A stretch of 64,000 nucleotides of DNA from Nitrospira sp. GTDB lineage: Bacteria > Nitrospirota > Nitrospiria > Nitrospirales > Nitrospiraceae. The notes beneath the pieces were generated by a model that was not told the DNA's origin, did no database searches, and saw only the letters and a program-made list of their open reading frames with translations. Location: the NCBI GenBank assembly GCA_029194675.1, contig JARFXP010000002.1, positions 310,001 through 374,000 of the forward strand, in the 5' to 3' direction. Made by a program: the position numbers and the translations under genes. Of this stretch, positions 28,816 through 49,125 are shown in pieces; within the stretch, counting starts at the first letter, position 1; each line of letters opens with the position of its first letter.

Positions 28816-28956
28816 TTCAATTCGTTACGTATAGATTTGGAGTCGCTGGAAGCAAGGCGACTCTTGTGGAGGCGGCTGCCGAACTCTGCAACGAGGCGAT
28901 CGGACTTCAGCTATAGCTGAGCGCGCTTAAGCGATGTCGTATGTTATGACTGGATC
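28816..28956 (+). repeat. Leader repeat A, upstream of TIR-FGE copy 1
   Basis: The sequence from TTCAATTCGTTACGTATAG to ATGACTGGATC immediately before the TIR-FGE start is matched, with many substitutions, by 34736-34885 ahead of the third TIR copy, and its first part by about 31720-31760 ahead of the second. It therefore travels with the cassette and probably contains its promoter and ribosome site. I see no protein in it. Confidence 0.6.
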
Positions 28957-30279
28957 ATGAGTAGAATCCTTATTTCCTATCGCCGCGAGGATAGCGCCGA
29001 CGTCACGGGGCGTATCCATGACCGGCTCATCAAAGTGTTTCCAAAGGCGGTCTTCAGGGATGTGGATAATATCCCCTATGGAGCTGACTTCCGCATTATT
29101 TTAGAACAGCAGGTGAGCAAGTGCGATGTGTTTCTCGCCGTGATCGGGCCAGGCTGGATGGAGGCGAAAGGCAGCGAGGGCCAGGTCAGACTTGAAGACC
29201 CGAAGGATTTCGTTCGGATTGAAATCGAGTCGGCACTGAAACGTCAGATCCCGGTGATTCCAGTGCTTGTCCGAGGGGCCAAGATCCCAGCCGCAGAACG
29301 GCTGCCGGCAAGCATCCAAGATTTGTCTTACCGTCACGGCATCGAGGTGCGACCAGACCCGGACTTTCATCGGGACATGGACCGGTTGATCGAAGCTCTG
29401 AAACAAAACATTGAGGCCCCGGTCGATCAGCGAACGGAACTCTCCATGGTTGGCAAGCCCGAGAGTACGAAGGGAAGGCCTGCCCTCAAAGCGGAAGAGA
29501 AACCCTCGCCAAAGCCAGTGAGGGCCAAGAAACAAACTGCCCGCCAGTCAAGCATCCGGAGTTCCGAAAAGCCGCGACAGGAAGCGCCCTTTGAGATGGT
29601 CAAGGTGCCGAAGGGGCCATTCTTGTATGGCGAGCAGAAGACACGTGAGGTGATCGACTACGACTATTGGATCGATCAGTATCCGGTGACCAACCAAAAG
29701 TATGCAGCCTTCATCGCGGCTGGAGGCTACGCAAACCAGCAATACTGGTCAGAAGAAGGGTGGAATTGGAAAGCAGATAAGAACCTTTCTGTTCCGGAAT
29801 CTTGGAACGACGCGGAATCGAAGAGAGCGGACCACCCTGTCGTTGGTGTCAGCTATTACGAAGCAGAGGCCTATGCAAAATGGGCAGGAAAACGTCTGCC
29901 GACCGAGCGAGAGTGGGAAAAGGCTGCACGTGGCACGGATGGGAGGGTGTATCCCTGGGGGGACCAGTTCGATGAGAGCGCATGCAACAGTGCGAAATCA
30001 GTTTTGGGAGGAATATGGAAGGCATTTACAGCCAGCATTCAGACCACACCAGTTACCCAATATCCGAACGGAGTCAGCCCCTATGGATGCTATGACATGG
30101 CTGGGAATGTCGGTGAGTGGTGCGCAGACTGGTATGACTGGAACAAAGATACACGCGTGCTCCGTGGTGGCTCCTGGTACGATGAGGCGGCCCTCGTTCG
30201 ATCCGCGTTCCGGAACAGGCTCATTCCCTCGAAACGGTTCGACGCTATCGGGTTCCGTTGCGCCCGGGACATTCCGTGA
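28957..30279 (+). CDS. TIR domain fused to FGE-sulfatase (SUMF1/EgtB-like) domain
   Basis: A 440-residue protein. Residues 1-145 are a TIR domain (SRILISYRREDSADVTGRIH, DVFLAVIGPGW, FVRIEIE with candidate catalytic Glu 89 or 91). A charged, Pro/Lys-rich linker follows (about 150-210). Residues 210-440 are an FGE-sulfatase domain ([70 protein letters not shown]). TIR domains often degrade or cyclise NAD. FGE-type domains here usually bind ligands and need not be enzymes. It is the only intact copy of three in the island, and a SLATT fragment follows it. Confidence 0.9.
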   Translation: MSRILISYRREDSADVTGRIHDRLIKVFPKAVFRDVDNIPYGADFRIILEQQVSKCDVFLAVIGPGWMEAKGSEGQVRLEDPKDFVRIEIESALKRQIPVIPVLVRGAKIPAAERLPASIQDLSYRHGIEVRPDPDFHRDMDRLIEALKQNIEAPVDQRTELSMVGKPESTKGRPALKAEEKPSPKPVRAKKQTARQSSIRSSEKPRQEAPFEMVKVPKGPFLYGEQKTREVIDYDYWIDQYPVTNQKYAAFIAAGGYANQQYWSEEGWNWKADKNLSVPESWNDAESKRADHPVVGVSYYEAEAYAKWAGKRLPTEREWEKAARGTDGRVYPWGDQFDESACNSAKSVLGGIWKAFTASIQTTPVTQYPNGVSPYGCYDMAGNVGEWCADWYDWNKDTRVLRGGSWYDEAALVRSAFRNRLIPSKRFDAIGFRCARDIP

Positions 30280-30342
30280 TCCGATACCCTTTTCGCTTTA
30301 ACCCTTTTCCCTTTTCTCCGAATTCTTTCTTGCGAGGTGACC

Positions 30343-30534
30343 ATGCTGAAGAAACCAAAAGATCCTGAGCAGATGCGGTCGGAGATGGCCAAGCTCATTG
30401 AGGCGTTGGAGCTGCCGGAGCTGAACAGGCAGTTCCTGCGCGCGCGGTGGTTGGAGCAGGTCATTTGGATGGACGAGAAGGCGCAGGAGTCTGTGTGGTG
30501 GTATCGTGTGCTGCCCCTGATGAAGCCAGCCTAA
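30343..30534 (+). pseudogene. Truncated SLATT/DUF4231 gene, copy 1
   Basis: About 60 codons that match the N-terminus of the intact SLATT protein at 35271 (EQMRSEMAKLIEALELPEL, ARWLEQVIWMD, AQESVWWYR), then the similarity stops and the frame closes at once. The two membrane helices are missing, so no working membrane protein is made. The break lies about 30 bases before the O-methyltransferase tail relic, and copy 2 at 33342 has almost the same break and joining sequence, so the truncation predates the duplication of the unit. Confidence 0.8.
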
Positions 30535-30561
30535 CCAGCACCCAGACCTACACAGCGTTCG

Positions 30562-30759
30562 CTCGATCTGCTTACTCCCAAGGGCGTGATCTTGATCGAC
30601 AACGTGCTGTGGAGTGGCGAAGTCTTGAAACAACCACTGCCGGACGCCTCCACCGCCGCCATTCAGGAACTCAATCGGGTGGTGGCAAAAAAACCGCGAG
30701 TGACTGCCGTGCTCGTTACGATTCGTGATGGGATTCTGGTGGTGAAGAGAGCGATCTAG
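30562..30759 (+). pseudogene. O-methyltransferase 3'-end relic, copy 2
   Basis: An open stretch of 65 codons, LDLLTPKGVILIDNVLWSGEV...RDGILVVKRAI, aligned without gaps to the last 65 codons of the O-methyltransferase at 27287-27928, but with many silent and some amino-acid changes. It has no start of its own beyond the junction and is too short for a methyltransferase. The intact frame and the divergence from the parent gene suggest that it came from another lineage along with the TIR-FGE unit rather than by recent local copying. Confidence 0.85.
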
Positions 30760-31172
30760 ATCAGTTCGACCATGGCGGTGCGGAACGCACGCAGATCATC
30801 AAGACGCGTTGCAACGATCTCATACACCTGTCCGTAGTCGATTTTCCAGTAGACATGGACCAGCATGTTTCGGAAGCGTGCCATCTGCTGCAGGCGGCTG
30901 GAAAGCTCCGGGGAGATCAGTCCGGCCCGTTCAAGTGTGCTGAAGCAGCCTGCATATTCCTCCGGCACCTGATGCAGTTGTTTGGCAGACACATGAAAAC
31001 AGAGCGCCAGCGCGGCCTCAATCGCAATGAGTAGGCGATAACAGGCCACATCAAGAGTGTCTTGGCTGGAGAGGAATATCTCGCGAGACAGACGACGCAA
31101 CCCTTCAAGTCGGCCCAACGAAACATCGATTTCAGTGCAACGCGCCCGGATGAGATCCGGATTGAGGCTCAT
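30756..31172 (-). CDS. HEPN toxin of MNT/HEPN system (HepT-like, DUF86)
   Basis: A 138-residue helical protein with the RNMLVHVYW motif near residue 110, the Rx4-6H signature of HEPN ribonucleases, followed by a Tyr two residues later as in HepT. Such proteins cleave RNA and are silenced by AMP addition to the conserved Tyr by the partner nucleotidyltransferase. The start overlaps the partner's stop by four bases. The pair is on the minus strand between two plus-strand TIR cassettes, and its stop overlaps the O-methyltransferase relic. Confidence 0.88.
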   Translation of the reverse strand: MSLNPDLIRARCTEIDVSLGRLEGLRRLSREIFLSSQDTLDVACYRLLIAIEAALALCFHVSAKQLHQVPEEYAGCFSTLERAGLISPELSSRLQQMARFRNMLVHVYWKIDYGQVYEIVATRLDDLRAFRTAMVELI

Positions 31173-31588
31173 GCAGCGAAGGCATCCTTCGTGCTGATGC
31201 GGAGGAGCGGAGCGAGATCGAGATAGCGTCGTGCCACGTCTTCCATCATGTCGGTCAAAAAGGCCTCGTCTCGACAGAGCAGAAGGTGTCCCCGTAGCAC
31301 GTGATACAGAAATGACAGCGGCGCGTCATTGATCACCCGGACATCGACGGGCAACCCGAATGTAGCGGTAAGCTTCGCTGAGAGCGTATCGGTAACCCCG
31401 GCTTTTTGTGTAACCGCCGCGTCCTCGAGAAAGATTCCGACGTCCACATCATGGATTCTGTCGGACTCAAGCAAGGACCCATAGAGATAGGCAAACCGTA
31501 CGTCTGGTTCTCGCTCCAGCTCCACACGAAGCCGAGCGAACAAATCCTCCCGCTTTTCCGGGTGAACGGTGTAGGTAACAGCTTTCAT
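31169..31588 (-). CDS. Minimal nucleotidyltransferase antitoxin (MntA-like)
   Basis: A 139-residue protein with the MNT signature GSLLESDRIHDVDVGIF near residue 45 (GS followed by DxD), which defines the nucleotidyltransferase active site. MntA enzymes AMPylate the HEPN partner. The ATG at 31588 is chosen because family similarity starts there; GAGAAG lies just before it. A longer frame to 31921 runs into the leader repeat of the next cassette and is not likely to be used. It is the first gene of the pair. Confidence 0.85.
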   Translation of the reverse strand: MKAVTYTVHPEKREDLFARLRVELEREPDVRFAYLYGSLLESDRIHDVDVGIFLEDAAVTQKAGVTDTLSAKLTATFGLPVDVRVINDAPLSFLYHVLRGHLLLCRDEAFLTDMMEDVARRYLDLAPLLRISTKDAFAA

Positions 31589-31639
31589 GCGCTTCTCAAC
31601 AAGGCTGATTAAGCACGCGATAACCAGCCTCATCTTACC

Positions 31640-31760
31640 TCGACCGACGGCGGAGAACAAGAAAGGCGGGCTTGACCGCCGGATACCGCCACGGCCACCC
31701 GTTGGCACCGCGTTGACCCCCCATCTCGTTAAGTATAGATTTGCGTCGAGCGAAGGCTGG
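31640..31760 (+). repeat. Leader repeat B, upstream of TIR-FGE copy 2
   Basis: Bases such as AAGAAAGGCGGGCTTGACCG, CCGCGTTGACCC and CTCGTTAAGTATAGATTTGCG match the leader ahead of the third TIR gene (AAGAAGGCCGGATTGACC, CATTGACCC, TTCGTTAAGTATAGATTTGAA), and the last part matches leader A. It starts just upstream of the MntA gene, and the TIR gene begins 84 bases after it. It probably carries the promoter of the cassette. Confidence 0.6.
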
Positions 31761-31843
31761 AAAACATCTGCATTCTGGAGTGCCGAGCAGTTGAAGGGGT
31801 AACGGCACTTCACGAAGCTCGGTGCCTTTGCGGTGGCTAGGTC

Positions 31844-33277
31844 ATGAGCACAATCCTGATTTCCTACCGACGCGAGGATAGCGCCGATGTCACGGGGCGC
31901 ATCTACGACCGGCTCGTCCAACAGTTTGGCGCAGGGTCAATCTTCCAGGACGTCGATTCTATTCCCTTCGGTGTCGATTTTCGAAAGTATCTCGATGAGC
32001 AGGTAGGCAAGTGCGATGTATTTCTCGCCGTTATCGGGCCAGGCTGGGTGGAGGCGAAAAACAGCGAGGGCCAGGCAAGACTTGAAGACCCGAAGGATCA
32101 CGTTCGGATTGAAATCGAGTGGGCGCTGAAACGTAAGATCCCGGTGATTCCAGTGCTTGTCCGAGACGCCAAGATCCCAGCCGCAGAACGGCTGCCAGCA
32201 GCCATCCAAGATTTGTCCTACCGTAACGGCATCGAGGTGCGACCAGATCCGGACTTTCATCGAGACCTGGATCGGTTAATTAAATTTCTGAAGCAAGAGA
32301 TCAAGGGACTGGTCGACCAACCTCCGGAACCATCCGTGGCTGGTAAGGCTGTGGTCGAGGATCTGTCAAGGCGGCCCTCTTCTGTGTCGGAGGAGCGATT
32401 CTCGCCGGTTTCAAAAGAGAAGCCCGGGCCGGGGCCGAAAGAGAAACCCAAGAGGGTCACTCAAGAGGGTCACTCAAGAGAAACTCTCGCCAAAGCCAGC
32501 GAGGGCCAAGAAACAAACTGCCCGCCAGTCAAGCGTTAGGAGTCTAGAAAAACCGCGACAGGAAGCGCCCTTTGAGATGGTGAAGGTGCCGAAAGGGCCC
32601 TTCTTGTACGGTGACAACAAAGTTCGAGAGGTGATCGACTACGACTATTGGATCGATCAGTATCCCATGACCAACAAAAAGTATGCAGTCTTCATCGCGC
32701 TGGAGGTTACACAAACCAGCAATACTGGTCAGAAGAAGGGTGGACGTGGAAGATGGAAGATAACATTACTATCCCATTTGATTGGGAAGGCGCGGAATGG
32801 AAACGAGCGGATCACCCTGTTTTCGTCAGTTATTACGAAGCCGAGGCCTATGCAAAATGGGCAGAGAAACGGTTGCCGACCGAGCGGGAGTGGGAAAAGG
32901 CTGCCCGTGGCACGGATGGGAGAAAATATCCCTGGGGGGATCAGTTCAATAAGAACGCATGCAATTATGGCAAATCTTTTTGGAGATGGCTACGGAAGGC
33001 ACTTGCATTTGGAAGCAACGTTGATGGAAGGAGCATTGACACCACACTGGTCAACCAGTATCGCAAGGGAGTGAGTCCTTATGGGTGCTATGACATGGCT
33101 GGGAATGTCTGGGAGTGGTGCGCGGGCTGGTATGACGCGGACAAAGATGGACGCGTGGTCCACGGTGGGTCCTGGATCAATGTACCGGCCGACGTGCGGT
33201 CTGCGGCTCGGGCCGGGCTTCCTCCCACGGATCGGAGCGGCCATGTCGGCTTCCGTCTTGCCCAGGACATTCCCTAA
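31844..33277 (+). pseudogene. TIR-FGE copy 2, broken by two frameshifts
   Basis: It has the same TIR-linker-FGE plan as copy 1 and close protein similarity in all parts. The TIR part is intact (STILISYRREDSADVTG, DVFLAVIGPGW, VRIEIEWALKR). At 32450-32475 the 13-base unit AAGAGGGTCACTC is repeated twice in tandem; removing one unit restores the linker frame exactly. At about 32699 one G of a GCGGCTGG stretch is missing relative to copy 1, giving a second shift. After it the FGE frame runs cleanly to GFRLAQDIP. As read, only a TIR with a partial linker (231 residues) would be made, which might still be active. Confidence 0.88.
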
Positions 33278-33341
33278 CCCTTTGCCCTTTGCTCTTTGAC
33301 CCTTTGTGTTCTGAATTGAAATGCTTTCTTATGAGGTGACC

Positions 33342-33535
33342 ATGGTGAAGAAACCAAAAGATCCTGAGCAGATGCGGTCGGAAATGGGCAAGCTCATTGA
33401 GGCGTTGGAGCTGCCGGAGCTGAACAAGCAGTTCCTGCGCGCGCGGTGGTTGGAGCAGGTCATTTGGATGGACGAGAAGGCGTGGGAGTCCGTGCGGTGG
33501 TCTCGCAGGAGTTCCGGATGGTGCTGGCCTAACCA
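33342..33535 (+). pseudogene. Truncated SLATT/DUF4231 gene, copy 2
   Basis: The 5' end of a SLATT gene, nearly identical to copy 1 at 30343 (EQMRSEMGKLIEALELPEL, ARWLEQVIWMD), breaking off after the WWYR equivalent. The joining sequence GCCTAACCAGCGCCCAAACC before the O-methyltransferase relic is shared with copy 1 (GCCTAACCAGCACCCAGACC). The helices are absent. Confidence 0.8.
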
Positions 33536-33559
33536 GCGCCCAAACCTACGCAGCCCTCG

Positions 33560-33772
33560 CTCGACCTGCTTGCCCCGAAAGGCGTCATCCTGATCGACAA
33601 CGTGCTGTGGAGCGGCGAAGTCTTGAAACAACCGCCGTTGGATGAATCCACTGTAGCCATTCAGGAGCTGAACCGTGTCGTCTCAAACGATCCGCGCGTC
33701 ACCGCCGTCCTGGTCACGATCCGGGACGGGATTTTGGTGGTGAGAAGAGCGGAGAGTTTCGAATCGCGGTGA
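33560..33772 (+). pseudogene. O-methyltransferase 3'-end relic, copy 3
   Basis: It begins at the same codon as copy 2 (LDLLAPKGVILIDNVLWSGEV) and runs open to RDGILVVRRAE plus a short extra tail before TGA. It aligns without gaps to the O-methyltransferase C-terminus but differs from both the parent and copy 2 at many bases. It marks the end of the second TIR-FGE unit. Confidence 0.85.
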
Positions 33773-33790
33773 TTGAGAGCACTCTGTCAA

Positions 33791-34219
33791 TCAACCCCGC
33801 GGCAAGACACTAAAACCTTCACGATGGCCAGCCTCTCGCAATCGTTGGTCGAGGCACACAAACTCTCGGTGAGATGGAGCACCTTGGCACCATACCATCG
33901 CTGCCGCTAATTGCAGAGAATCGGCAGCTCGTAAGGGATGCAGCCGCAAGACGCGAGCAGCCTGTTCTCGAACAGCTTCACTCGGTTCCACCTCTGTCCA
34001 AGCGGCCACCAGTGCTCGCAAGATAATTTGTGCCTGCCTTTCTTCTTCGATGCCGAGAACCGCCTCTCTTCTAAGCCTTGAGAGAGCCGAGAGGCACTCA
34101 ATCGGCGAAGCCCACCACGCGATGATGGATTGGTCTGTCTGAAGCAGTTTTCTTAAGGAAGGGCTTTCGCGTTCCTGAAGGCACAGAGGGATCAGCGCGG
34201 AAGCGTCCCAAAACCTCAT
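33791..34219 (-). CDS. vapC: PIN-domain toxin (VapC-like)
   Basis: A 142-residue PIN ribonuclease. The acidic residues expected in the active site are visible: Asp in RFWDASAL near residue 5, Glu in PIECLSAL near 41, Asp in RAADSLQLAAA near 99, and Asp in CLDQRL near 124. These toxins cut RNA. Its start overlaps the stop of the antitoxin gene by four bases. The pair is on the minus strand right after the third O-methyltransferase relic. Confidence 0.9.
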   Translation of the reverse strand: MRFWDASALIPLCLQERESPSLRKLLQTDQSIIAWWASPIECLSALSRLRREAVLGIEEERQAQIILRALVAAWTEVEPSEAVREQAARVLRLHPLRAADSLQLAAAMVWCQGAPSHREFVCLDQRLREAGHREGFSVLPRG

Positions 34220-34506
34220 CGCCCCTCTGACCGATCAGTCAAAATGGCTTTAAGCCCTCGACCCTTTCGATCCTTGGGTCGTGGTAGTTTCCAGAAGCCA
34301 GCCGGTAATTTACCGGTTCCCAAGCGAACCAGCCCGGCACGAGCAAGATCGCGCAGGGTGTCACTCTCATGACTGTCTTTCGACAAGGGCACGAGCTTCG
34401 CGATAGGCTTCCCTCGCTCGACCACCAGTACCTCGTCACCGGCTTTGACCTTGGCAAGACAGGCACTCAGGGTGGCTTTCAGCGTAGAAACTGCAGCACG
34501 TTTCAT
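34216..34506 (-). CDS. vapB: Phd/YefM-type antitoxin
   Basis: A 96-residue protein. The first 55 residues follow the Phd/YefM pattern (AVSTLKATLSACLAKVKAGDEVLVVERGKPIAKLVPL), which binds operator DNA. The C-terminal half, rich in Arg, Lys, Gly and Pro, should bind the PIN toxin. It is the first gene of the pair and probably represses it. It is transcribed away from the third TIR leader. Confidence 0.88.
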   Translation of the reverse strand: MKRAAVSTLKATLSACLAKVKAGDEVLVVERGKPIAKLVPLSKDSHESDTLRDLARAGLVRLGTGKLPAGFWKLPRPKDRKGRGLKAILTDRSEGR

Positions 34507-34664
34507 GACGACTCCTTAGTGCATGTACATGTGACCAATATAGTCCATTCAGAAGAACGGTGCAAGGAAAGCGAGGATAGATCAACTGCGTGGGCCGCGG
34601 TCTCAGGCTGTCCTCAAACTCGCCGAACCGAAGAAACGACCGTAGGCCTAATCATAGCTCGATA

Positions 34665-34885
34665 TCAAGAAGCACAAGAAGGCCGGATTGACCACCGGAT
34701 ATCGCCACAGATGGCGGTTTGTACCACATTGACCCATCAATTCGTTAAGTATAGATTTGAAGTCGCTGAAAGCCAGGCGAGTGATGGAGCCGTTCTGTGG
34801 GCTGTGGCTAAGCTATGCATAGAGGCGAACGGACCTCAGCTATGCCTAAGCGAGCTTCAGCGATGTCCGATGTGATGACTGGATC
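34665..34885 (+). repeat. Leader repeat C, upstream of TIR copy 3
   Basis: It matches leader B in its first half and leader A in its second half, up to TGATGACTGGATC directly before the TIR start codon. It lies in the 379-base gap between the antitoxin start and the third TIR gene; the first part of that gap (34507-34664) should hold the antitoxin promoter and shows nothing else. Confidence 0.6.
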
Positions 34886-35171
34886 ATGAGCAGGATTCTG
34901 ATCTGTTACGGCCGCGATGACAGCGCCGATGTCACCGGGGCGGATCTACGACCGTTTGGTTCAGCAGGTTGGCCGGGATACGGACTACAAGGATATCGAT
35001 TCCATTCCCTTCGGTGTCGACTTTCGGAAAGATCTCGATGAACAGCTAGTCAAGTGCACTGTGTCCCTCGCGATGATTGGGCGGGACTGGATGAAAAAAC
35101 TGAGCAGTAAGGGTAAATCCAGGCTCGATGATCCGAGGGATTTCGTCCGCATTGAGATCGAGATTGTGTAA
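34886..35171 (+). pseudogene. TIR copy 3, frameshifted and lacking its FGE part
   Basis: MSRILICYGRDDSADVTG is followed by a one-base shift (GTCACCGGGGCGG against GTCACGGGGCGC in the other copies), then the TIR continues (RIYDRLVQQVGRD, DIDSIPFGVDFRKDLDEQ, DPRDFVRIEIE) and stops abruptly. The bases after the stop (TAACCCTGTGGCC...CTTTGACCCTTTG) match the sequence after the FGE stop in copy 2, so linker and FGE were deleted between TIR and the 3' flank. The conserved Tyr-Arg pair of the other copies reads Tyr-Gly. Confidence 0.82.
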
Positions 35172-35270
35172 CCCTGTGGCCTTTGTTCTTTGACCCTTTG
35201 CTCTTGACGACAAGGGCCATGAGAGACGATCAACCTTTCTGTTGCAATGAACGACTCGATGGAGGAGCCT

Positions 35271-35828
35271 ATGAATAGTATAAGCAAGACGACAGACCAT
35301 GAGTCTATGCGGGCCGAGATGGACAAGCTCATCTCATCCCTAGAGTTACCGGAGCTGAACAAGGAGTTCATGCGGGCGCGATGGTTGGAGCTGGTCATTT
35401 GGATGGATGGGAAGGCACAGGAGTCCGTCTGGTGGTATCGCAGGCTACGTCTGGCGACGATCATCGGCGGCGTGATTGTACCGGCGTTGGTCAGTTTGAA
35501 TGTCGGCAGCGAGATGCAAGGACTGATTCAAGCGATCACGTTCATCGTCAGCCTTGCGGTGGCGATGAGTGCGGCCGTGGAGGAATTCTTTCGCTACGGC
35601 GAGCGATGGCGACACTATCGGCGGATGACCGAGTCACTCAAGAGCGAAGGATGGCAGTTTTTGCAACTGAGCGGAAGCTACGCCAACCAAACCCACATTC
35701 AAGCGTACCCGACCTTCGCGGCACGGGTTGAAGGGTTGAGCCGTGAAGAAGTTGAGTCCTACATCACGCAGGTGTTCACAGAAAAAAAGGAGACGAACGA
35801 CAAAATAGACGCACCCTCTACCACGTGA
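35271..35828 (+). CDS. SLATT (DUF4231) membrane protein, intact
   Basis: A 185-residue protein: a soluble N-terminal helix region (ESMRAEMDKLISSLELPEL), then two membrane helices (about 62-82 and 90-108), then a C-terminal helical part (ERWRHYRRMTESLKSEGWQF). This is the SLATT plan; such proteins are thought to form pores that kill the cell when an associated sensor is triggered. The start has GGAGG five bases upstream. It is the full-length form of the two fragments at 30343 and 33342 and follows the third TIR copy, so TIR(-FGE) plus SLATT is the ancestral cassette. Confidence 0.87.
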   Translation: MNSISKTTDHESMRAEMDKLISSLELPELNKEFMRARWLELVIWMDGKAQESVWWYRRLRLATIIGGVIVPALVSLNVGSEMQGLIQAITFIVSLAVAMSAAVEEFFRYGERWRHYRRMTESLKSEGWQFLQLSGSYANQTHIQAYPTFAARVEGLSREEVESYITQVFTEKKETNDKIDAPSTT

Positions 35829-35944
35829 AAGGATAGGTGCTCGTGTCGACTTGTTGACACGGTTTCTCATCGGCAGTAGCCTGGCGCAGGCGTTGCCACT
35901 GAACGGATTGAGGTCGCGCCACCCGCCAGTCACCGAGGACTTGG

Positions 35945-37189
35945 ATGTCCAAAAACGTCTTCATTTCCTCAACTTTCAAAGATCTTGAATCGTTTCGCAG
36001 GACGGTCATTGACGCTGTCAGGCAGTTAGGTGCCGTTGATGTCTCCATGGAGCACTTTGGAGCACGCGACGATCGCCCGAAGGATGAATGTATCAAGTTG
36101 ATCCGTGAACGGTCGGATGTCTTCGTGGGGATCTATGCCCATCGATATGGGTACGTCCCTGATGGGGATTCGATTTCGATTCTCGAAGCAGAATATGACG
36201 CGGCGACATCGGCCCAGGTGCCTCGCTTTATCTACATGCTGAAAGACGAAGCGGCTTGGCCGGCCGATCTCAAGGATTCCGGGGAGTCGGCAACGAAGCT
36301 GTCGGGCTTCAAACAGCGGTTGCTGAAACTGCACATCGTGCAACGGTTCACCAATAAAGACGATGTTGCGACGCATGTGGCGGCTGATCTCGGGCGATAT
36401 TTTTCAGAAGGGGTCATCGCCGCTGACGGATGGCATCGAGGGATTCTGCACGAACCACCGCCCAATTGGGTGGCGCCGCTCGCGCAGAATCGCCGGCGTT
36501 ACAAGGTTGTGGCGTTCGACCTCGACGGTACATTACTTCGGGGAGACCAGTATCAATTCTCTTGGGAACTCTTCTGGAACGGCCTCGGTTTTTCAGGGAA
36601 GATACAGAAAGACTTGATTCGAGAGTACCGGAACAAAGCCCAACAAGGGGAGGGTCGAGCACAACGGGTGCTCGCGTATCGAAACTGGTGCCAGCAGGCC
36701 TGTCAGAAGTTTATGACGAGGAAAGTGACCAGAGCGCAACTGACCCGGATGGTGGCCTCGCTCCGGCTCACCGTGAATTGTTGCAGCACACTGAAAGCCC
36801 TGCGGGATGAAGGTATTGTGTTAGCCATTGTCTCGGGTGGAGTCAGCCTGTTGTTGGAGGAGAAATTATCGGACTTTCAAGATCTCTTTGACTTTGTATT
36901 CATCAATGAACTCCTCTTTGATTCCCGTGGCTACCTAAACGATGTGGTGTCAACCGAGTATGACTTCGAAGGCAAAGCGGAAGCGTTGGCGTATGTGTGC
37001 CAACGGGTCGGGTGCGAACCGAAAAGCGAGGCTGTTTTTGTCGGAGACGCATTTAATGATGAAACGATCATGCTGTCGGTGAGTTTGGCGATCGCCTATC
37101 CTCCCAAAGATAAGGTTGTCGAGGGAATCGCCACGCCGATTGAAGAGGACGACCTCGAACTTGTCCGTCAACAGATCGTCAAGGAGTGA
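35945..37189 (+). CDS. DUF4062 domain fused to HAD-family phosphatase
   Basis: A 414-residue protein. Residues 1-165 are a DUF4062 domain (KNVFISSTFKDLESFRRTVID, RDDRPKDEC, SDVFVGIYAHRYGY), usually the N-terminal part of STAND-type defence NTPases. Residues 185-410 are a HAD hydrolase: FDLDGTL with Asp 192 and Asp 194, the Ser/Thr segment LAIVSGGVSLL, a Lys in the FEGKAEAL region and FVGDAFNDE near the end, most like SerB-type phosphatases. Joining a conflict-system sensor to a phosphatase in place of an NTPase is unusual. GAGGA precedes the ATG by six bases. It follows the SLATT gene by 116 bases on the same strand. Confidence 0.85.
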   Translation: MSKNVFISSTFKDLESFRRTVIDAVRQLGAVDVSMEHFGARDDRPKDECIKLIRERSDVFVGIYAHRYGYVPDGDSISILEAEYDAATSAQVPRFIYMLKDEAAWPADLKDSGESATKLSGFKQRLLKLHIVQRFTNKDDVATHVAADLGRYFSEGVIAADGWHRGILHEPPPNWVAPLAQNRRRYKVVAFDLDGTLLRGDQYQFSWELFWNGLGFSGKIQKDLIREYRNKAQQGEGRAQRVLAYRNWCQQACQKFMTRKVTRAQLTRMVASLRLTVNCCSTLKALRDEGIVLAIVSGGVSLLLEEKLSDFQDLFDFVFINELLFDSRGYLNDVVSTEYDFEGKAEALAYVCQRVGCEPKSEAVFVGDAFNDETIMLSVSLAIAYPPKDKVVEGIATPIEEDDLELVRQQIVKE

Positions 37190-37277
37190 GGGGCTGAGTT
37201 GAAGAAAGCAGATCGTGCGCGGCAATGAGGCTAATCGATTGATCAGCCCACATGCTCGTTGAGACTCGGGGAGGCTC

Positions 37278-37525
37278 ATGAAACCCCATGCCTTTGTGGC
37301 GATGCCGTTTGGCGTGAAGTTGGCGTGAAGAAGGACGGTCAGGGCAACGAGGTTGATTTCAATCGCGTCTATGCGGAGCTGATCAGACCGGTGCTGGAGG
37401 CCACAGGGGTGGAGGTCTTTCGGACGGACGAAGAAGAGTCTGCAGGGGATATTCGCACAGATATGTTTCAAGAGTTGCGTCTGGCAGCTCTCGTCGTAGT
37501 CAATCGGGTGCGGGGCCTTGCCATC
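37278..37525 (+). pseudogene. Relic of a deoxyribosyltransferase-like (DUF4071-associated) gene
   Basis: MKPHAFVAMPFGVK is followed by the 11-base unit TTGGCGTGAAG repeated twice in tandem (about 37310-37331), which shifts the frame. Taking one unit out gives a continuous frame: KKDGQGNEVDFNRVYAELIRP, DEEESAGDIRTDMF. This matches the N-terminus of the protein at 42237 (FVLMPFGRK, DFDAVYAELIAP). Similarity ends near 37500, before the ADLTGANANVFYELG part, so the 3' part is lost too. Confidence 0.75.
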
Positions 37526-38099
37526 ATCGTGGCAGCGAGAGTACATTGCCCAACACTTAGACTGTAAACGTTTTCGAAATCGTGCTACTAGCGGGGAATA
37601 GAAGTTTGGAGTGAACATAACCAATGAGGATGCACATGAAGCTCATGCGCGTCGATCTTCGAAGCAAGCAACCCGTAACCTTCACCAGTTCCCCTCAATC
37701 TGGGTCTCTGCGGTTCGGATACCAACAACGAATACGTGGTGGTATTTGCTCGCGACAAACGCTGGGCAGGTATCTAGTGGGCAAGTTTATGCGGATTCTC
37801 TCCCGTCAGCGTTTTTGCGAATCGGTCAAGTAACATATCAAACAGCATGACTTCGCTGCCTTCAATGTTTGGGAGAGGACTTGGGCAAAACGGCTGCCCA
37901 CCTAGTTCAGAGCTGGTTTGGAATATGGCCGTAAGCGGTGCTGTTATAAGAAGAAGATAAGTGTCCGTGGTGGATTACGGAGAATCCCGTGACGGCGGCA
38001 ATCCACTTTGTCGACCGTGAGTGAACACCCAACACTGATGCAGATGATCTCCAATATTCTTGCGGTACGGAATTTTCATCTAACATGCGGTAACCTGGG
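37526..38099. other. Gap without a convincing gene
   Basis: After the relic there are short frames on the plus strand around 37611-37850, but none shows a ribosome site, a recognisable motif or consistent codon use. One short frame ending near 37772 (NNEYVVVFARDKRWAGI) looks protein-like and could be another gene fragment. The last 100 bases should hold the promoter of the following operon; no clear -35/-10 pair was identified. Confidence 0.5.
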
Positions 38100-38771
38100 A
38101 TGCATATGACCCTGCGGGACTGCTATTTCTGTGGGCAGATCAAAGGACGACCTGAACGTGACCTCATCGCCCAGATGCTCCCTGGGTCAAAATACGTTCG
38201 TCGAGTGATGATGGAAAGCGACGCGTTCGCGGTCATACCAAGCCTCGGTCAACTGACCGATGGTCACGCCTTGCTGTGCCCCAAATGGCACGTGCGTAGC
38301 TTCGCCGCGCTTGGTCCTGATCTGCACGTTGAGTATGACGCCATGAAACGACGATTGCAACAGGCGCTCAAAGCGCTCTACGGCGACACGGTGCTGTTGT
38401 TCGAACATGGTATGGCTGCTACGGGCCGTCGGATTCCTTGCTCGGTGGATCACGCTCATTTGCATTTTGTGCCACTGCCTGCGGAGGTTGCGGCCACCTT
38501 GGTTCCTGTCCTTCGCTGGCGAAGGTTCGACGGCTCGATTGCGATGTTGAGTAGCCTGGCTGGCGGTGACGAATATCTTCAACTTGAGACTGCCGACGGT
38601 ATCTGTCGCATCGCGACACAGGGCGCGGAAGGTTTCGAGTCGCAACTCATGCGCAGGGTGATTGCTGCGAGGGCAGGGAGCGAAGGGGAGTGGAACTGGC
38701 GCGATCTGCCCAAACCAGACGCTGCGCATGCCACCTGGCAGCACTTCAGGTTGCGTTGGCGGGGGCTTTGA
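38100..38771 (+). CDS. HIT-family nucleotide hydrolase/transferase, first copy
   Basis: A 223-residue HIT protein. The N-terminal CYFC may bind zinc, GHALLCPKWHVRSFAAL is the usual HIT strand-helix, and the active-site triad HAHLH is at residues 118-122 with all three His present. HIT enzymes split nucleoside phosphoramidates, dinucleotides or nucleotide-linked adducts. The C-terminal 90 residues are not part of the core fold. It is the first gene of a tight operon; its stop shares one base with the next start. Its neighbours bind or cut nucleotide sugars, so its substrate may be a product of theirs. Confidence 0.88.
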   Translation: MHMTLRDCYFCGQIKGRPERDLIAQMLPGSKYVRRVMMESDAFAVIPSLGQLTDGHALLCPKWHVRSFAALGPDLHVEYDAMKRRLQQALKALYGDTVLLFEHGMAATGRRIPCSVDHAHLHFVPLPAEVAATLVPVLRWRRFDGSIAMLSSLAGGDEYLQLETADGICRIATQGAEGFESQLMRRVIAARAGSEGEWNWRDLPKPDAAHATWQHFRLRWRGL

Positions 38772-39967
38772 TGAACAACTATTGCTTTGTCATCATGCCC
38801 TACGGAAGAAAGAAGGGTGTGGGTGGCCGGCGGATGATCGATTTCGACAAAGTGTATGAAGACATGATTGTCCCAGCAGTCGACGGCTTCCTCGATCTAC
38901 ACTGCATACGGTGCGACCGCATCGACGAGCCGGGTTCGATCCACAAGCGGATGATGACGCAAATTTTCGAAGCGCGAGTCGCCATTGTTGATACCTCCAC
39001 CCTGAACGCCAATGTGTTCTATGAACTTGGGGTGAGGCATGCCCTCACGCGTTCGGTCACGGTACTGATTCAGGAGGAGGAAACCGAATCGCCGTTCAAC
39101 ATCGCCGGGATGGCCACAATTCGCTACGGCGCAAACAAACAGAGCATGGCGCATACGAAGGACACCATACGGGCCTACGTCAGGAACGCATTGTCCAACC
39201 CCAATGGCACGGATAGCCTTGTGTATGAGGCTTTGCCGCAATTGAGGGTGCAACGGACGCAACAACAGGTCTCGAAGTTCACCGTCACACACTATCGCCT
39301 CAAAGGCTGTCCTGAAACCGGAATAAGCCGACGTAGGGTGGGATTCGTTACGGGTGATCGGCGTGACATCAATGTAGGCCAGATATGGGTCAATTCTGAG
39401 AACACCAATATGCAGATGGACAGTTTCTACGGCAAGTCCACCTCCGCGACTATTCGCTACCTTGGCGCCGAAAAAGACGCCATCGGTATGGTGGCCCGCG
39501 ATACCATCGGTGACGCGCTGCGCGCAAAGCTGGATGGTCGTCTCGTGGTCGATCCGACGACCGTGATCCCTACAACGGCCGGGGCGCTGGAAGCAACCAA
39601 TAACGTCAAGTGGATCTTTCACGTTGCCGCGGTTATCGGCCAGCCGCTGGTGGGGTATAGACCGATTGAACAGGTTGATCAGTGCGTGAAGGCAGCGTTG
39701 CGACTTGCCAATCACCAGGATTTCGCAAACGACGAGATTCGCTCCATATTGTTTCCCATCTTCGGCACCGGACCGGGGGGCGGCGATCTGGAATCCACGA
39801 TCAAGGCATGCCTTGATGCGGCAGTAGAACATTTGGGGCGCAGCTGTGAACAGCCAAGGGGGATGCGTGACATCTACTTCTATGTTTGGGGAGCGCGGGA
39901 TCTTGAGATCTGCACAACGGTTGCCTCCAAGAACCCCGCACTGCTTGCCGATGACAGCCCCGTTTGA
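38771..39967 (+). CDS. Deoxyribosyltransferase-like domain fused to a macro domain
   Basis: A 398-residue protein. Residues 1-130 are a nucleoside-deoxyribosyltransferase/TIR-like domain (NYCFVIMPYGRKKG, DRIDEPGSIHKRM, STLNANVFYELGVRHAL). Residues 165-380 fit a macro domain: GDRRDINVGQIWVNSENTNM, VIPTTAGALEATNNVKWIFHV, RSILFPIFGTGPGGGDLE. Macro domains bind ADP-ribose or related nucleotides. The fusion suggests a protein that makes or cuts a nucleotide-sugar bond and senses the product. It overlaps the genes before and after by 1 and 17 bases. Confidence 0.85.
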   Translation: MNNYCFVIMPYGRKKGVGGRRMIDFDKVYEDMIVPAVDGFLDLHCIRCDRIDEPGSIHKRMMTQIFEARVAIVDTSTLNANVFYELGVRHALTRSVTVLIQEEETESPFNIAGMATIRYGANKQSMAHTKDTIRAYVRNALSNPNGTDSLVYEALPQLRVQRTQQQVSKFTVTHYRLKGCPETGISRRRVGFVTGDRRDINVGQIWVNSENTNMQMDSFYGKSTSATIRYLGAEKDAIGMVARDTIGDALRAKLDGRLVVDPTTVIPTTAGALEATNNVKWIFHVAAVIGQPLVGYRPIEQVDQCVKAALRLANHQDFANDEIRSILFPIFGTGPGGGDLESTIKACLDAAVEHLGRSCEQPRGMRDIYFYVWGARDLEICTTVASKNPALLADDSPV

Positions 39968-42236: not shown

Positions 42237-43580
42237 GTGACGACGCCCCATCCGCTCTGCTTTGTGCTGATGCCATTCGGCCGCAAACCAGGCCTCGGCT
42301 GCGGCATCGTCGATTTCGATGCCGTGTATGCGGAGTTGATCGCACCCGCGATAGAAAAGGCCGGTCTTGAACCTTTGCGTGCCGACGAAGAAATGGCGGG
42401 CGGCATCATTCACAAACCGATGTTCGAGCGGCTGATTCTGTGCGACTATGCCGTCGCCGATCTTACCGGCGCCAATGCCAATGTCTTTTACGAGTTGGGT
42501 TTGCGGCACGGAATCAAGCCGGCTAGCACGGTGTTAATTTTTGCTGATAGCGGCGGGGTGCTTCCGTTCGATGTTGCTCCACTCAGGGCGATACCCTACA
42601 AGCTCGGTCCCGATGGGAAGCCAACCGCAGCGACTGAAGGCCGGCAGGCGCTGGCGGAAAAGTTACTCGCTGCCCGAAGCGGGCTTGTTGACAGCCCGGT
42701 GTTTCAGCTGATCGATGGTTTTCCGGATATCCAGCGGTTGAAGACAGATGTCTTCCGTGATCGAGTAGAGTATGCGCGGCAGCTGAAGGAACGGTTGGCA
42801 AATGCGCGGGAGTCAGGATGGGAAGCACTAAAGGTGATCGAGACTGAGCTCGTCGAAGCTCCAGGCGGTCTGGCGGATGCTGAGGGCGGGGTTGTCATTG
42901 ACCTCTACCTCTCCTACCGTGCGATTAAAGCGTGGGATGCCATGATCGCGTTGGCAGATAAGATGTCGAAGCCTTTGGCGGCAACACCTTTGGTTCGGGA
43001 ACAATTGGGTTTGGCCCTAAACCGCGCTGGCCGTGGTGATGAGGCAGAGAGCGTGCTCCTGGAATTGATCACGCGGCGTGGCACGTCCAGCGAGACCTGT
43101 GGAATGCTGGGACGGGTCTACAAGGATCGCTGGGATGCGGCGGTGAAGTGCGGCGACACCTTTGCGGCGCGTGGGCTGCTCAATAAAGCGATCGATGCCT
43201 ATCTTCGTGGGTTCGAAGCCGATTGGCGCGACGCCTATCCCGGGATTAATGCTGTGACGCTGATGGAGCTGAAAGACCCGCCCGATGCCAGGCGCGAGCG
43301 GCTCATACCGGTGGTCGCATACGCGGTGGAGAGACGTATTGCGTCCGGCAAACCGGATTATTGGGACTATGCCACGCTCGTGGAGCTAGCGGTACTTGCC
43401 AAAGACGAACAAAAGGCCGAGTCAGCCCTGGCCGATGCGCTTGCGGCCATGCGCGAACCTTGGGAACCGGAGACGACGGCCAGGAACCTAAGATTGATTC
43501 GCGAAGCCCGCGAGCGGCGCGACGAATCTATCCAGTGGGCGAAGGTCATAGAAGCTGAATTGGAGCGTCGCTCGGAATAG
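42237..43580 (+). CDS. Deoxyribosyltransferase-like domain plus TPR/DUF4071 (MAP3K TRAFs-binding-like) region
   Basis: A 447-residue protein. Residues 1-130 match the N-terminal domain of the macro fusion: PLCFVLMPFGRKPGLG, RADEEMAGGIIHKPMF, ADLTGANANVFYELGLRHGI. Residues 200-440 are TPR-like helices with LGRVYKDRWDAA and GINAVTLMELKD, the pattern of DUF4071, the bacterial relative of the N-terminal region of animal ASK-type MAP3 kinases. Such proteins are effectors in bacterial conflict systems. The GTG start has GGAG nearby; the 156-base gap ahead has no gene. A broken relative is at 37278. Confidence 0.85.
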   Translation: MTTPHPLCFVLMPFGRKPGLGCGIVDFDAVYAELIAPAIEKAGLEPLRADEEMAGGIIHKPMFERLILCDYAVADLTGANANVFYELGLRHGIKPASTVLIFADSGGVLPFDVAPLRAIPYKLGPDGKPTAATEGRQALAEKLLAARSGLVDSPVFQLIDGFPDIQRLKTDVFRDRVEYARQLKERLANARESGWEALKVIETELVEAPGGLADAEGGVVIDLYLSYRAIKAWDAMIALADKMSKPLAATPLVREQLGLALNRAGRGDEAESVLLELITRRGTSSETCGMLGRVYKDRWDAAVKCGDTFAARGLLNKAIDAYLRGFEADWRDAYPGINAVTLMELKDPPDARRERLIPVVAYAVERRIASGKPDYWDYATLVELAVLAKDEQKAESALADALAAMREPWEPETTARNLRLIREARERRDESIQWAKVIEAELERRSE

Positions 43581-45986: not shown

Positions 45987-47597
45987 ATGGACACACAACA
46001 GAAGGCAGACAAGAAGGTCCAGCGCACCAGAGAGTTGCTGGGCCGCGCTCACTGGCCTATGGGAAGTGCAGATGCCCGCGAGGCCTTGCAACTGAGCAGT
46101 GATCTCAAGGACCTGCGCCAGTTTGCCCTGCTCGCAGATCTCAGTGAACGCGTGGTGCGAATGCAGCCCAACGCGATAACTGAGCAAAAAGTTTACGCAC
46201 AGGCCCTGATCGAAACCGGCCAGGCGACCGCCGCGATCGCCGTGGCCGAGAAGGCCTTGGACGGACTCTCTTCCCGTCATAAGGAATGGAACGAGCTCAC
46301 CGGTCTGATTGGACGTGCGTACAAACAAATTGCCATCGACACCGGAGATCCCCATTGTCCGGAAAGCCGAACGGCGCTCGCACGCGCGCTCGACGCCTAC
46401 AGTAAACCTTACAAACGGAATCCGAAAAACACCTGGCATGCCATCAATCTTGTCGCGATTGCTGCATTCGCCAAGCGGAGCGGCGTGGCCATCCCGACGT
46501 CGATCAATCCCACCACACTTGCCAGGAATATCATTGCGACGATCAACCATAAACCAAAGCGTATGCGCGACCGCTGGGATGCGGCGACGTTAGCCGAAGC
46601 GTACTTGGCGCTGCACGATCTGGATGCGGTGGAGCAGTATCTACACATCTATCTCTCGGATTCCAAGATACGCCCCTTTGAGGTCGGTAGTACCCTCAGG
46701 CAATTCAGTGAGGTCTGGGGATTGCGGGACGCCACCGATTCTCGCAGCAAAGGCCTCTTGCAAGCTTTGCGGGCACGGCTCATGTGCCTTCCAGGGGCGC
46801 AGTTACATCTCTCATCCAGTGACGTAGCACTTCAGCGAAAGATGCCTCCGCCGGAGGAACGACAACTTGAAGCAATCCTTGGAAACGAAGGGACCCAATC
46901 CTACGAATGGTGGAAGTGGGGGTTGGACCGTGCCTGCTCGGTGGCCGCCATCTATGCCGGCATCGGGCAGCGTGTGGGAACGGGATTTGTCGTGTCGGCA
47001 CGAGATCTGACGTACGCCGATACGGATGAATTAGTAGTCGTAACGAACTTTCATGTGGTGAACGAAAAAGGAACTAGCAGGGCTCTGAGGCCAAGCGACG
47101 CCCAGATCGTCTTCGAGGCCATCAATCCCCGCAAGCGATACAGCATTAAGGAAATCGTGTGGTCGTCCCCAGTCGACCGTCATGACGCAAGCATCCTTCG
47201 CCTGGCCGAACAGCCTTCCACCGTGACCGCCATCCCTCTTGCCAAGAACCTCCCCATTGTGGAACCGACCGCAAAAGTTTACATCATCGGCCATCCGGGG
47301 GGAGGTGGATTGGAGTTTTCATTCCAGGACAACGCGCTACTCGATCATGAAGGGGTAGAGGGGGGGAAGCCGAGTACGCCCGACGTGTGTCGCCTCCACT
47401 ACCGTGCTCCAACAGAAAAAGGAAGTTCGGGCAGCCCCGTGTTCAATGCCGGCTACTGGGAAGGCATTGCCTTGCATCATGAGGGAGGCATCCTATCAAA
47501 ATTGAACGGCCAGCAAGGGACCTACCCGGCCAATGAAGGGATCTCCCTTCTCTCGATCGCTGAAGCGATTGCCAACAAAAGAAATTATCACTCATGA
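45987..47597 (+). CDS. TPR/DUF4071-like protein with C-terminal trypsin-like protease
   Basis: A 536-residue protein. Residues 1-290 are TPR and DUF4071-like helices (LIGRAYKQIAIDTGD, WHAINLVAIAAFAKR, RDRWDAATLAEAYLALHDLD). Residues 315-530 are a trypsin-fold serine protease with the triad His 356 in TNFHVV, Asp 400 in RHDASIL and Ser 481 in GSSGSP. It has no signal peptide, so the protease acts in the cytoplasm. Proteases of this kind in conflict systems act as initiators that cut partner effectors, and the hydrolase gene just upstream is the obvious candidate. Confidence 0.87.
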   Translation: MDTQQKADKKVQRTRELLGRAHWPMGSADAREALQLSSDLKDLRQFALLADLSERVVRMQPNAITEQKVYAQALIETGQATAAIAVAEKALDGLSSRHKEWNELTGLIGRAYKQIAIDTGDPHCPESRTALARALDAYSKPYKRNPKNTWHAINLVAIAAFAKRSGVAIPTSINPTTLARNIIATINHKPKRMRDRWDAATLAEAYLALHDLDAVEQYLHIYLSDSKIRPFEVGSTLRQFSEVWGLRDATDSRSKGLLQALRARLMCLPGAQLHLSSSDVALQRKMPPPEERQLEAILGNEGTQSYEWWKWGLDRACSVAAIYAGIGQRVGTGFVVSARDLTYADTDELVVVTNFHVVNEKGTSRALRPSDAQIVFEAINPRKRYSIKEIVWSSPVDRHDASILRLAEQPSTVTAIPLAKNLPIVEPTAKVYIIGHPGGGGLEFSFQDNALLDHEGVEGGKPSTPDVCRLHYRAPTEKGSSGSPVFNAGYWEGIALHHEGGILSKLNGQQGTYPANEGISLLSIAEAIANKRNYHS

Positions 47598-48288
47598 ATT
47601 CATCAGCCACCAATCCATTGATGCTCCTTTGAGATGGAAACGGGATCGTATTGTTGCAGGCCAATTATCAATGTCCGTACCGATTACCAAACTTGATTGT
47701 GACATTGTCCTCAGTCGTTCGCACAAGGACCGCCATTTTGGCTTGTAACTCGAACAGTGGCTATCCGCAATGATCTTTCCCTCACGCAGGGCGTCTGCAG
47801 TGGCGATCTCTTGTTCGCCGCAGCTTGCCAGCAACGTGGAGTCAGGGTGCAGTGGCTACGTCAGCTTTCATATGGCATCAGCAAGGTCCAATTCATCTGT
47901 CTCCGGGACGGGGGTGGGGGCGACGGTCCCGGCGGCACCGCGCACATGTATCGGGAAGTGAACCGCCGGACAGGTCAGGTGACCTGGATCGATACTCGAT
48001 CTCTTTAATTCGAAACCCACCGTACCCATTTCGATACAGTCCCGTATCGGTTTAGATTCTCCACCCAATTGCTACGACCAGTCTCGCAGCGGTTTTATAC
48101 CTTCTTCACAGCCGTTGAAGAAACCATAGTGAAAAAAATCCTTAGAAAGAGTACATAGGGATGCAATCAAGCTAAGTCCCTTCTGCCGGTACGTATTGGC
48201 AAGATGATTGCTCAAGTCACAGGTCGACACTATCTCGAGTTTCGTCCCGGTCGGTCTTGCACCTATTACATCACAGAAAGGAGTGCAT
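47598..48288. other. Gap with one doubtful ORF
   Basis: Between the protease and the caspase-like gene I find no clear gene. A plus-strand frame at 47757-48008 encodes 83 residues ending in a Gly-rich stretch (DGGGGDGPGGTAHM) and RTGQVTWIDTRSL, which looks protein-like, but it has no convincing ribosome site or family; the first part of it may be out of frame. The last 40 bases hold the ribosome site AAAGGAG of the next gene. Confidence 0.35.
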
Positions 48289-49125
48289 ATGGCAAAACGA
48301 GCGGTGCTCATCGGGATCAACAAGTATCAGGTTCCTGGGTCGGATCTGAACGGGTGTGTCAATGACGTGAAGAACCTGAGTGGAGTGCTGAAGACATACT
48401 ATGGTTTTGCGGACAAAGACGTCATGACCCTCACCGATCTGAAGGCAACGAAGAAGGCGATGCAGTCGGCGATCCAGAAGCTGATTGCGAGCGGGAAGAA
48501 GGGCGATGTCCTGCTCCTCCATTATTCTGGGCATGGGTCGAATGTGCCGGATGACAACGGCGACGAGGCGGATCATCGGGATGAGATCTTGTGCCCGACC
48601 GATCTGGATTGGAAAGACACGCTGCGCGACGATTGGCTTCGAAAGACGTTCGACAAGCTACGTAAGGGCGTCAGCCTCACGGTGATCATGGACTGTTGCC
48701 ACTCCGGCAGCATCACTCGCGCTATCACGCCGCTGGATGCGCCCAGAAGAGAACGGTTCCTTCCGTGCCCGTTGGATCTGATGGCCACTGAGTCCGGCAG
48801 AAAGCTGCGAGGAACGATTCGCGGTCAGCTGGGAAAAGCTCCCCGAGAACGGAAGAGAAAGAGCGATATCGTCCATGCCGACATTCAAGAGCTGTTGATC
48901 ACTGGCTGTCGGGATACCCAAACGTCAGCCGATGCCGATATCGGAGGGACCTATAATGGGGCGCTGACCTATTACCTCGTCGAATCGATCAAAGAAGCTG
49001 AGGGTAAGCTGACCTATCGAGAACTGCACCAGCGGACCACCGCAAGACTGAAGAAGAACGATTTCGATCAGGTGCCTCAACTTGAAGGACAGCGCGCCTC
49101 GTTCGATCGGCAGTTTCTGAGCTAG
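48289..49125 (+). CDS. Caspase-like (metacaspase-type) protease
   Basis: A 278-residue C14-family cysteine protease: KRAVLIGINKYQVPGSDLNG at the start, the catalytic His 82 in HYSGHGS and Cys 137 in DCCHSGS, with the usual substrate-pocket Asp residues around them. It has no signal peptide or adaptor domain, so it must be recruited or activated by something else. AAAGGAG precedes the ATG by five bases. It follows the TIR and protease genes and is followed by a patatin relic. Caspase-like proteases in bacteria act in cell-suicide defence, cutting partner effectors. Confidence 0.92.
   Translation: MAKRAVLIGINKYQVPGSDLNGCVNDVKNLSGVLKTYYGFADKDVMTLTDLKATKKAMQSAIQKLIASGKKGDVLLLHYSGHGSNVPDDNGDEADHRDEILCPTDLDWKDTLRDDWLRKTFDKLRKGVSLTVIMDCCHSGSITRAITPLDAPRRERFLPCPLDLMATESGRKLRGTIRGQLGKAPRERKRKSDIVHADIQELLITGCRDTQTSADADIGGTYNGALTYYLVESIKEAEGKLTYRELHQRTTARLKKNDFDQVPQLEGQRASFDRQFLS

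What the first reader, a model, noticed from the sequence alone, without database searches (positions are those of the whole stretch)
35945..37189. DUF4062 joined to a HAD phosphatase
DUF4062 usually precedes NTPases in defence proteins. Here it is joined to a complete SerB-like HAD domain with its catalytic Asp residues. That could make a phosphatase effector acting on a phosphorylated metabolite or nucleotide, an arrangement new to me.
Basis: partly seen in the sequence, partly recalled or inferred. Interest (0 to 1): 0.6.

Follow-up and report, generated by a model that had tools for sequence, protein, structure and literature searches.

The report
TIR-like NADase fused to HAD phosphatase
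A gene in a bacterial immune-gene island of Nitrospira really does join, in one protein, a domain now known in relatives to destroy the cell's NAD+ with an intact phosphatase domain, a rare combination that may stop phages by wrecking nucleotide metabolism.

Summary
Confirmed: 35945-37189 (+) is one intact 414-aa ORF with DUF4062 (aa 5-87, E=1.7e-24) and a HAD-IB phosphatase domain (about aa 186-391) carrying all four catalytic motifs. It is not a misassembly: a second Nitrospira genome has the same join in one reading frame (67-77% identity), though its copy is decaying. The intact stretches show strong purifying selection. The fusion occurs in 2 of 79 genomes of the genus and in no other genome, plasmid, phage or viral contig I could search. 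The HAD module was seen nowhere else in the order.

The interpretation needs correcting. A May 2026 preprint shows that DUF4062 is a TIR-like NADase. Our domain keeps the invariant Glu (E83) that aligns with catalytic E97 of the Swarozyc protein KpSwz, and its model has the TIR/deoxyribosyltransferase fold. So DUF4062 is probably itself a catalytic effector, and the HAD sits where other members carry a sensor. Best reading: a single-protein NADase-type abortive-infection factor whose auxiliary domain is an active phosphatase. It is not Swarozyc proper (no AUX domain; tree places it elsewhere). HAD phosphatases in defence are already known (Chp, DS-9). The HAD's substrate and any defence activity are untested.

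The parts
35945..37189 (+). DUF4062-HAD fusion gene, 414 aa
   Evidence: orthologous in-frame junction in G015
35945..36409 (+). DUF4062 TIR-like domain, aa 1-155
   Evidence: Pfam; KpSwz match; AlphaFold2 pLDDT about 95 over most of it; TIR/NDT fold matches
36191..36193 (+). codon of E83, predicted catalytic Glu of the NADase domain
   Evidence: Glu in 47 of 47 aligned members; aligns with an Ala in the KpSwz structures, which were solved as E97A (PMC13174449)
36410..36499 (+). linker aa 156-185, with GWxRG at aa 162-166
36500..37186 (+). HAD-IB phosphatase domain, about aa 186-391, and C-terminal tail to 414
36518..36526 (+). HAD motif I D192-L-D194
36833..36835 (+). HAD motif II S297
36974..36976 (+). 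HAD motif III K344
37046..37060 (+). HAD motif IV D368...D372
35247..35828 (+). SLATT (DUF4231) membrane-effector gene upstream; more likely belongs to the TIR-FGE-SLATT repeat array than to this gene
   Evidence: terminator-like hairpin 35841-35862, count not above chance; not upstream of the gene in G015
42237..43580 (+). TIR/NDT-like + TPR-S (MAP3K_TRAF_bd) gene; its 71%-identical orthologue lies directly after the fusion gene in G015

Best explanation
The gene encodes a single-chain immune effector. The N-terminal DUF4062 domain is a TIR-like NADase held inactive until infection and then assembled so that E83 cleaves NAD(P)+ to ADP-ribose(-phosphate) and nicotinamide, stopping growth and phage production. 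The C-terminal HAD-IB domain takes the place of the sensor (AUX) or NTPase module of other DUF4062 proteins and is a working Mg-dependent phosphatase. I think it most likely acts alongside the NADase on phosphorylated nucleotides or NAD(P)-derived products, or by turning over the phosphorylated ligand that gates the NADase. Shown here: the intact fusion, both sets of catalytic residues, the TIR-like fold, purifying selection, the defence-island setting. Inferred: NADase activity (from KpSwz and TEP1), phosphatase activity (from the motifs), abortive infection, and the division of labour between the domains.
For: DUF4062 and HAD both score above Pfam cut-offs. The N-terminus matches KpSwz, E=6e-10, whose NADase and abortive-infection activity are reported. 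E83 is invariant. TIR-STING, SPARTA-TIR, SARM1 and NDT/DNPH1 folds are the top structural matches, Z up to 13.6. All four HAD motifs are conserved in both fusion genes, with dN/dS 0.08-0.09 where measurable. The neighbourhood includes TIR-FGE, SLATT, TIR-macro, TPR-S-trypsin and caspase genes. Another Nitrospira (G222) fuses a macro-like domain to DUF4062 near the same TPR-S gene, so DUF4062 joined to nucleotide-handling domains recurs.
Against: No activity of this protein has been measured. The fusion is known from only two genomes, and one copy is a pseudogene, so the combination may be marginal. The fold cannot separate an NADase from a nucleotide N-glycosidase: DNPH1 and MilB match as well as TIRs do. 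The HAD could be a non-catalytic or regulatory module; in Chp, HAD active-site mutants stayed toxic while deletion of the domain did not. The HAD could not be modelled.
Confidence: 0.55

Rival explanations
1. The HAD domain is the sensor/regulator: it binds or dephosphorylates a phosphorylated metabolite that phages change, and this releases the DUF4062 NADase. Phosphatase turnover is a switch, not the weapon.
For: In KpSwz the C-terminal AUX domain senses the phage portal and gates the NADase. The HAD occupies the same position here, and accessory domains of TIR proteins are usually sensors.
Against: The full HAD catalytic set is conserved, more than pure ligand binding needs. No ligand is known.
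Confidence: 0.25
2. The phosphatase is the main effector and DUF4062 mainly an oligomerising or regulatory module.
For: Complete HAD active site. HAD phosphatases act in defence: Chp depletes ATP and IMP, and DS-9 contains a HAD.
Against: DUF4062 keeps the invariant catalytic Glu and TIR-like fold, and reported relatives are NADases.
Confidence: 0.13
3. DUF4062 here is a nucleotide N-glycosidase (DNPH1/MilB-like) and the HAD removes phosphate from the resulting (deoxy)ribose 5-phosphate or from nucleotides: a two-step nucleotide-degrading enzyme.
For: DNPH1 and MilB are the closest structural matches, Z 13-13.6, and share the catalytic-Glu architecture. A phosphatase would be a natural second step.
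Against: SPARTA-TIR chains score the same. The two tested DUF4062 proteins, KpSwz and TEP1, cleave NAD(P)+.
Confidence: 0.1
4. The gene is a chance fusion without immune function, drifting towards loss; the HAD does ordinary metabolic work.
For: Present in only 2 of 79 genomes of the genus, and one copy is broken.
Against: Strong purifying selection on both domains; defence-island location; sporadic presence and decay are typical of defence genes; far below the serB cut-off.
Confidence: 0.1

Closest known systems
Swarozyc (KpSwz), DUF4062 NADase phage-defence protein (PMC13174449; PDB 10wc)
   Same: N-terminal DUF4062 TIR-like domain with the catalytic Glu; defence-island gene; single protein; a second domain after DUF4062.
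   Different: The second domain is a HAD-IB phosphatase instead of the portal-binding HTH/winged AUX domain. In the tree this DUF4062 groups with other Nitrospirota (mostly STAND-fused) DUF4062, not the Swarozyc-like clade.
Chp, CARF-HAD phosphatase effectors of type III CRISPR (PMC12715507)
   Same: A HAD phosphatase domain fused to an immune domain in a predicted growth-arrest effector.
   Different: No CARF match here; the HAD is C-terminal and of the SerB-like HAD-IB kind; the partner is an NADase domain, not a cyclic-oligonucleotide sensor.
DS-9 metallophosphatase + HAD phosphatase operon (PMC13092281)
   Same: A HAD phosphatase in a validated phage-defence locus, substrate unknown.
   Different: Two genes and no DUF4062 reported in that paper.
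SerB / phosphoserine phosphatases (MtSerB2 3p96, MjPSP 1f5s)
   Same: Same HAD-IB fold family and catalytic motifs; E about 1e-10 to 1e-7 by sequence.
   Different: About 20-24% identity, cap about 17 residues longer, bit score far under the SerB equivalog cut-off, fused to an immune domain.

Membership tests
DUF4062 TIR-like NADase family | Match to PF13271 above the curated cut-off | tested here: met
   86.2 bits against a 24.7 cut-off
DUF4062 TIR-like NADase family | Conserved catalytic Glu (KpSwz E97) | tested here: met
   E83 is Glu in 47 of 47 aligned proteins and aligns with the Ala of the E97A structures; the numbering match is inferred
DUF4062 TIR-like NADase family | TIR/NDT-like fold | tested here: met
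   Model pLDDT about 95 over most of aa 1-155; TIR and NDT/DNPH1 folds are the best matches, Z 12-13.6
DUF4062 TIR-like NADase family | Hydrolyses NAD(P)+ to ADP-ribose(-phosphate) and nicotinamide | not testable with these tools
   needs biochemistry
Swarozyc | C-terminal HTH/winged AUX domain that binds phage portal | tested here: not met
   HAD occupies aa 186-391; the KpSwz match ends at aa 151-153
Swarozyc | DUF4062 of the Swarozyc-like clade | tested here: not met
   Groups with Nitrospirota (mostly STAND-fused) DUF4062, support 0.80-0.82; shares the GWxRG junction motif only
Swarozyc | Portal-triggered abortive infection | not testable with these tools
   needs phage challenge
HAD-IB phosphatase | Motifs I-IV: DxD, S/T, K, D...D | tested here: met
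   D192/D194, S297, K344, D368/D372, kept in G015
HAD-IB phosphatase | Phosphatase activity | not testable with these tools
   needs biochemistry
SerB (phosphoserine phosphatase) | Equivalog-level score to TIGR00338 | tested here: not met
   47.7 bits against a 144.15 cut-off
SerB (phosphoserine phosphatase) | Substrate residues equivalent to MjPSP E20 and R56 | tested here: inconclusive
   The acid is kept (D201, Glu in G015), but the Arg position is ambiguous because the cap is longer; MjPSP numbering is from memory
Chp (CARF-HAD) | CARF domain | tested here: not met
   No CARF family in the Pfam scan; the only other domain is DUF4062

The most novel reading that the evidence does not exclude
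A bifunctional immune enzyme: DUF4062 destroys NAD(P)+ while the fused HAD phosphatase dephosphorylates the products or salvage intermediates (ADPR-2'-phosphate, NMN, or the ADPR-pyrophosphate that phages make to rebuild NAD+), closing the phage route for NAD+ reconstitution. That would be a counter-counter-defence built into one protein.
Probability: 0.12. Interest if true: 0.8.

Novelty: new variant of a known kind. Interest (0 to 1): 0.45.

Why it matters
DUF4062 was assigned NADase activity only in 2026, and its partner domains are mostly uncharacterised. An NADase fused to an intact phosphatase is a compact two-residue test (E83A against D192N) of whether HAD phosphatases in immunity are weapons, switches or product processors, a question left open for Chp and DS-9. 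If the HAD acts on NAD-derived nucleotides, it would link NAD+ depletion to blocking of phage NAD+ repair.

Tried and rejected
Misassembly or gene-pair artefact: rejected, same junction in G015. Housekeeping SerB: rejected on score and sporadic distribution; the HAD module has no close relative in its own genome or order outside the two fusion genes. My first choice of catalytic residue was E81, by assuming a numbering offset for the PDB chain; corrected to E83, because the structures are E97A mutants, the aligned chain residue there is Ala, and E83 is 47/47 while E81 is 37/47. The GWxRG motif after the domain suggested a Swarozyc origin, but the tree does not support it. SLATT as operon partner: not supported, different upstream gene in G015 and a possible (chance-level) terminator between. 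Searches for further fusions in plasmids, phages, IMG/VR and GTDB contigs found none beyond G015; the GTDB scan used only two exact peptide patterns and its limit was then spent, so rarity outside Nitrospirota is not established. None of 46 DUF4062 proteins from viral contigs carries a HAD. No DUF4062-HAD mention found in the papers searched; supplements were not available.

Full report
What is there. The ORF at 35945-37189 (+) is a single uninterrupted frame of 414 aa. Pfam finds DUF4062 at aa 5-87 (E=1.7e-24) and HAD hydrolase at aa 186-372 (E=3.4e-14 and 6e-11), all above curated cut-offs. The HAD is of the HAD-IB, phosphoserine-phosphatase-like kind, but far under the SerB equivalog score, with a cap about 17 residues longer than SerB's. 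Motifs I-IV are complete: D192/D194, S297, K344, D368/D372.

The fusion is real. Within the genus (79 genomes) two genomes carry it. The second, G015, is Nitrospira sp. isolate S1bin.12, which places the window in or next to Nitrospira. Its gene runs from the C-terminal half of DUF4062 through the linker and into HAD motif I in one frame, at 77% identity, and 67% over the rest of the HAD. That copy has lost its first 80 codons and carries a frameshift, so it is a pseudogene. Across the intact stretches dN/dS is 0.08-0.09 where synonymous change is not saturated; over the HAD dN is 0.23 with dS saturated. Both halves were therefore under purifying selection as one gene.

Distribution. In 395 Nitrospirota genomes about 50 DUF4062 genes were hit and only these two loci have this HAD. 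The HAD module itself was found nowhere else in 235 genomes of the order or elsewhere in its own genome. No fusion was found in plasmids, phages or IMG/VR, and none of 46 DUF4062 proteins from viral contigs has a HAD. A pattern scan of about 85,000 genomes found only G015, but it used just two exact peptide patterns, so rarity elsewhere is not proven.

What DUF4062 does. A preprint of May 2026 (PMC13174449) shows that DUF4062 is a TIR-like NADase. [quoted passage not shown] human TEP1 is also active. Our domain aligns with KpSwz over aa 4-151 (E=6e-10). The structures were solved as E97A; the chain's Ala in the motif SFTEKAFDYA aligns with our E83, which is Glu in 47 of 47 family members. The domain was modelled with high confidence, and its best structural matches are TIR-STING, SPARTA TIR, SARM1 and the deoxyribosyltransferase/DNPH1 group. 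NADase activity is therefore predicted, not shown; a nucleotide N-glycosidase is a structural alternative.

Is it Swarozyc? No, by two tests: the AUX domain is replaced by the HAD, and the tree puts this DUF4062 with other Nitrospirota, mostly STAND-fused, DUF4062 domains (support 0.80-0.82). A GWxRG motif after the domain is shared with Swarozyc-like proteins but does not outweigh the tree. It may still work like Swarozyc.

Surroundings. From about 28.9 to 49.1 kb the window is an island of immune-type genes: three tandem copies, in different states of decay, of a TIR-FGE-SLATT module, toxin-antitoxin pairs, a TIR-like-macro protein, HIT-like proteins, a TIR/NDT-like-TPR-S protein, TIR-EAD7, TPR-S-trypsin and a caspase. 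In G015 the fusion gene is directly followed by a 71%-identical orthologue of the TPR-S gene at 42237-43580; but that gene also occurs in other genomes without the fusion, so a functional pairing is only a hint. In G222 the same gene lies near a macro-like/DUF4062 fusion.

Mechanism. Most likely (about 0.55): a single-protein abortive-infection factor whose DUF4062 depletes NAD(P)+ and whose HAD is an active auxiliary phosphatase. Within that, whether the HAD is a second weapon, a product processor or a catalytic switch is not settled by sequence. HAD enzymes in defence are precedented: Chp depletes ATP and IMP, with the caution that its active-site mutants stayed toxic, and DS-9 carries a HAD of unknown target. 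The most novel reading not excluded is that the HAD destroys NAD-rebuilding intermediates such as ADPR-pyrophosphate used by the phage NARP1 pathway (pathway described in PMC12774641, seen in the abstract); I give it 0.12.

Verdict. A real, rare and so far undescribed domain combination built from known kinds of parts: a new variant of the DUF4062 immune-protein kind. Its interpretation is partly right, since the phosphatase is complete but the likely executioner is the DUF4062 domain.

Noticed in passing
window 28864-35828: Three tandem copies about 3 kb apart of a TIR(-FGE sulfatase)-SLATT module at different stages of decay (FGE split from its TIR in copy 2, TIR remnant with intact SLATT in copy 3), interleaved with MNT/HepT and PIN/Phd toxin-antitoxin genes.
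   Followed up: partly
window 37259-37567: N-terminal remnant of a TIR/NDT-like 'MPFG' protein right after the fusion gene; an apparent 11-bp tandem duplication (GGCGTGAAGTT) breaks its frame.
   Followed up: partly
window 38690-39967: TIR-like N-terminus joined to a macro (ADP-ribose-binding) domain, preceded by an overlapping HIT-like gene at 38100-38771.
   Followed up: no
L138 9689-10831 (G222): Apparent macro-like domain fused to DUF4062 in another Nitrospira, in an island with TIR genes and the same TPR-S gene: another DUF4062 joined to an ADP-ribose-handling domain (macro read by eye; DUF4062 by HMM).
   Followed up: partly
window 42237-43580: TIR/NDT-like + TPR-S protein matching the ASK1-type MAP3K TRAF-binding region (PF13281, E=1e-45), at 71-72% identity in several Nitrospira TIR-rich islands.
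   Followed up: partly
window 45987-47597 and 48208-49125: TPR-S-trypsin-like peptidase followed by a caspase-like peptidase: possible protease-based immune genes at the end of the island.
   Followed up: no
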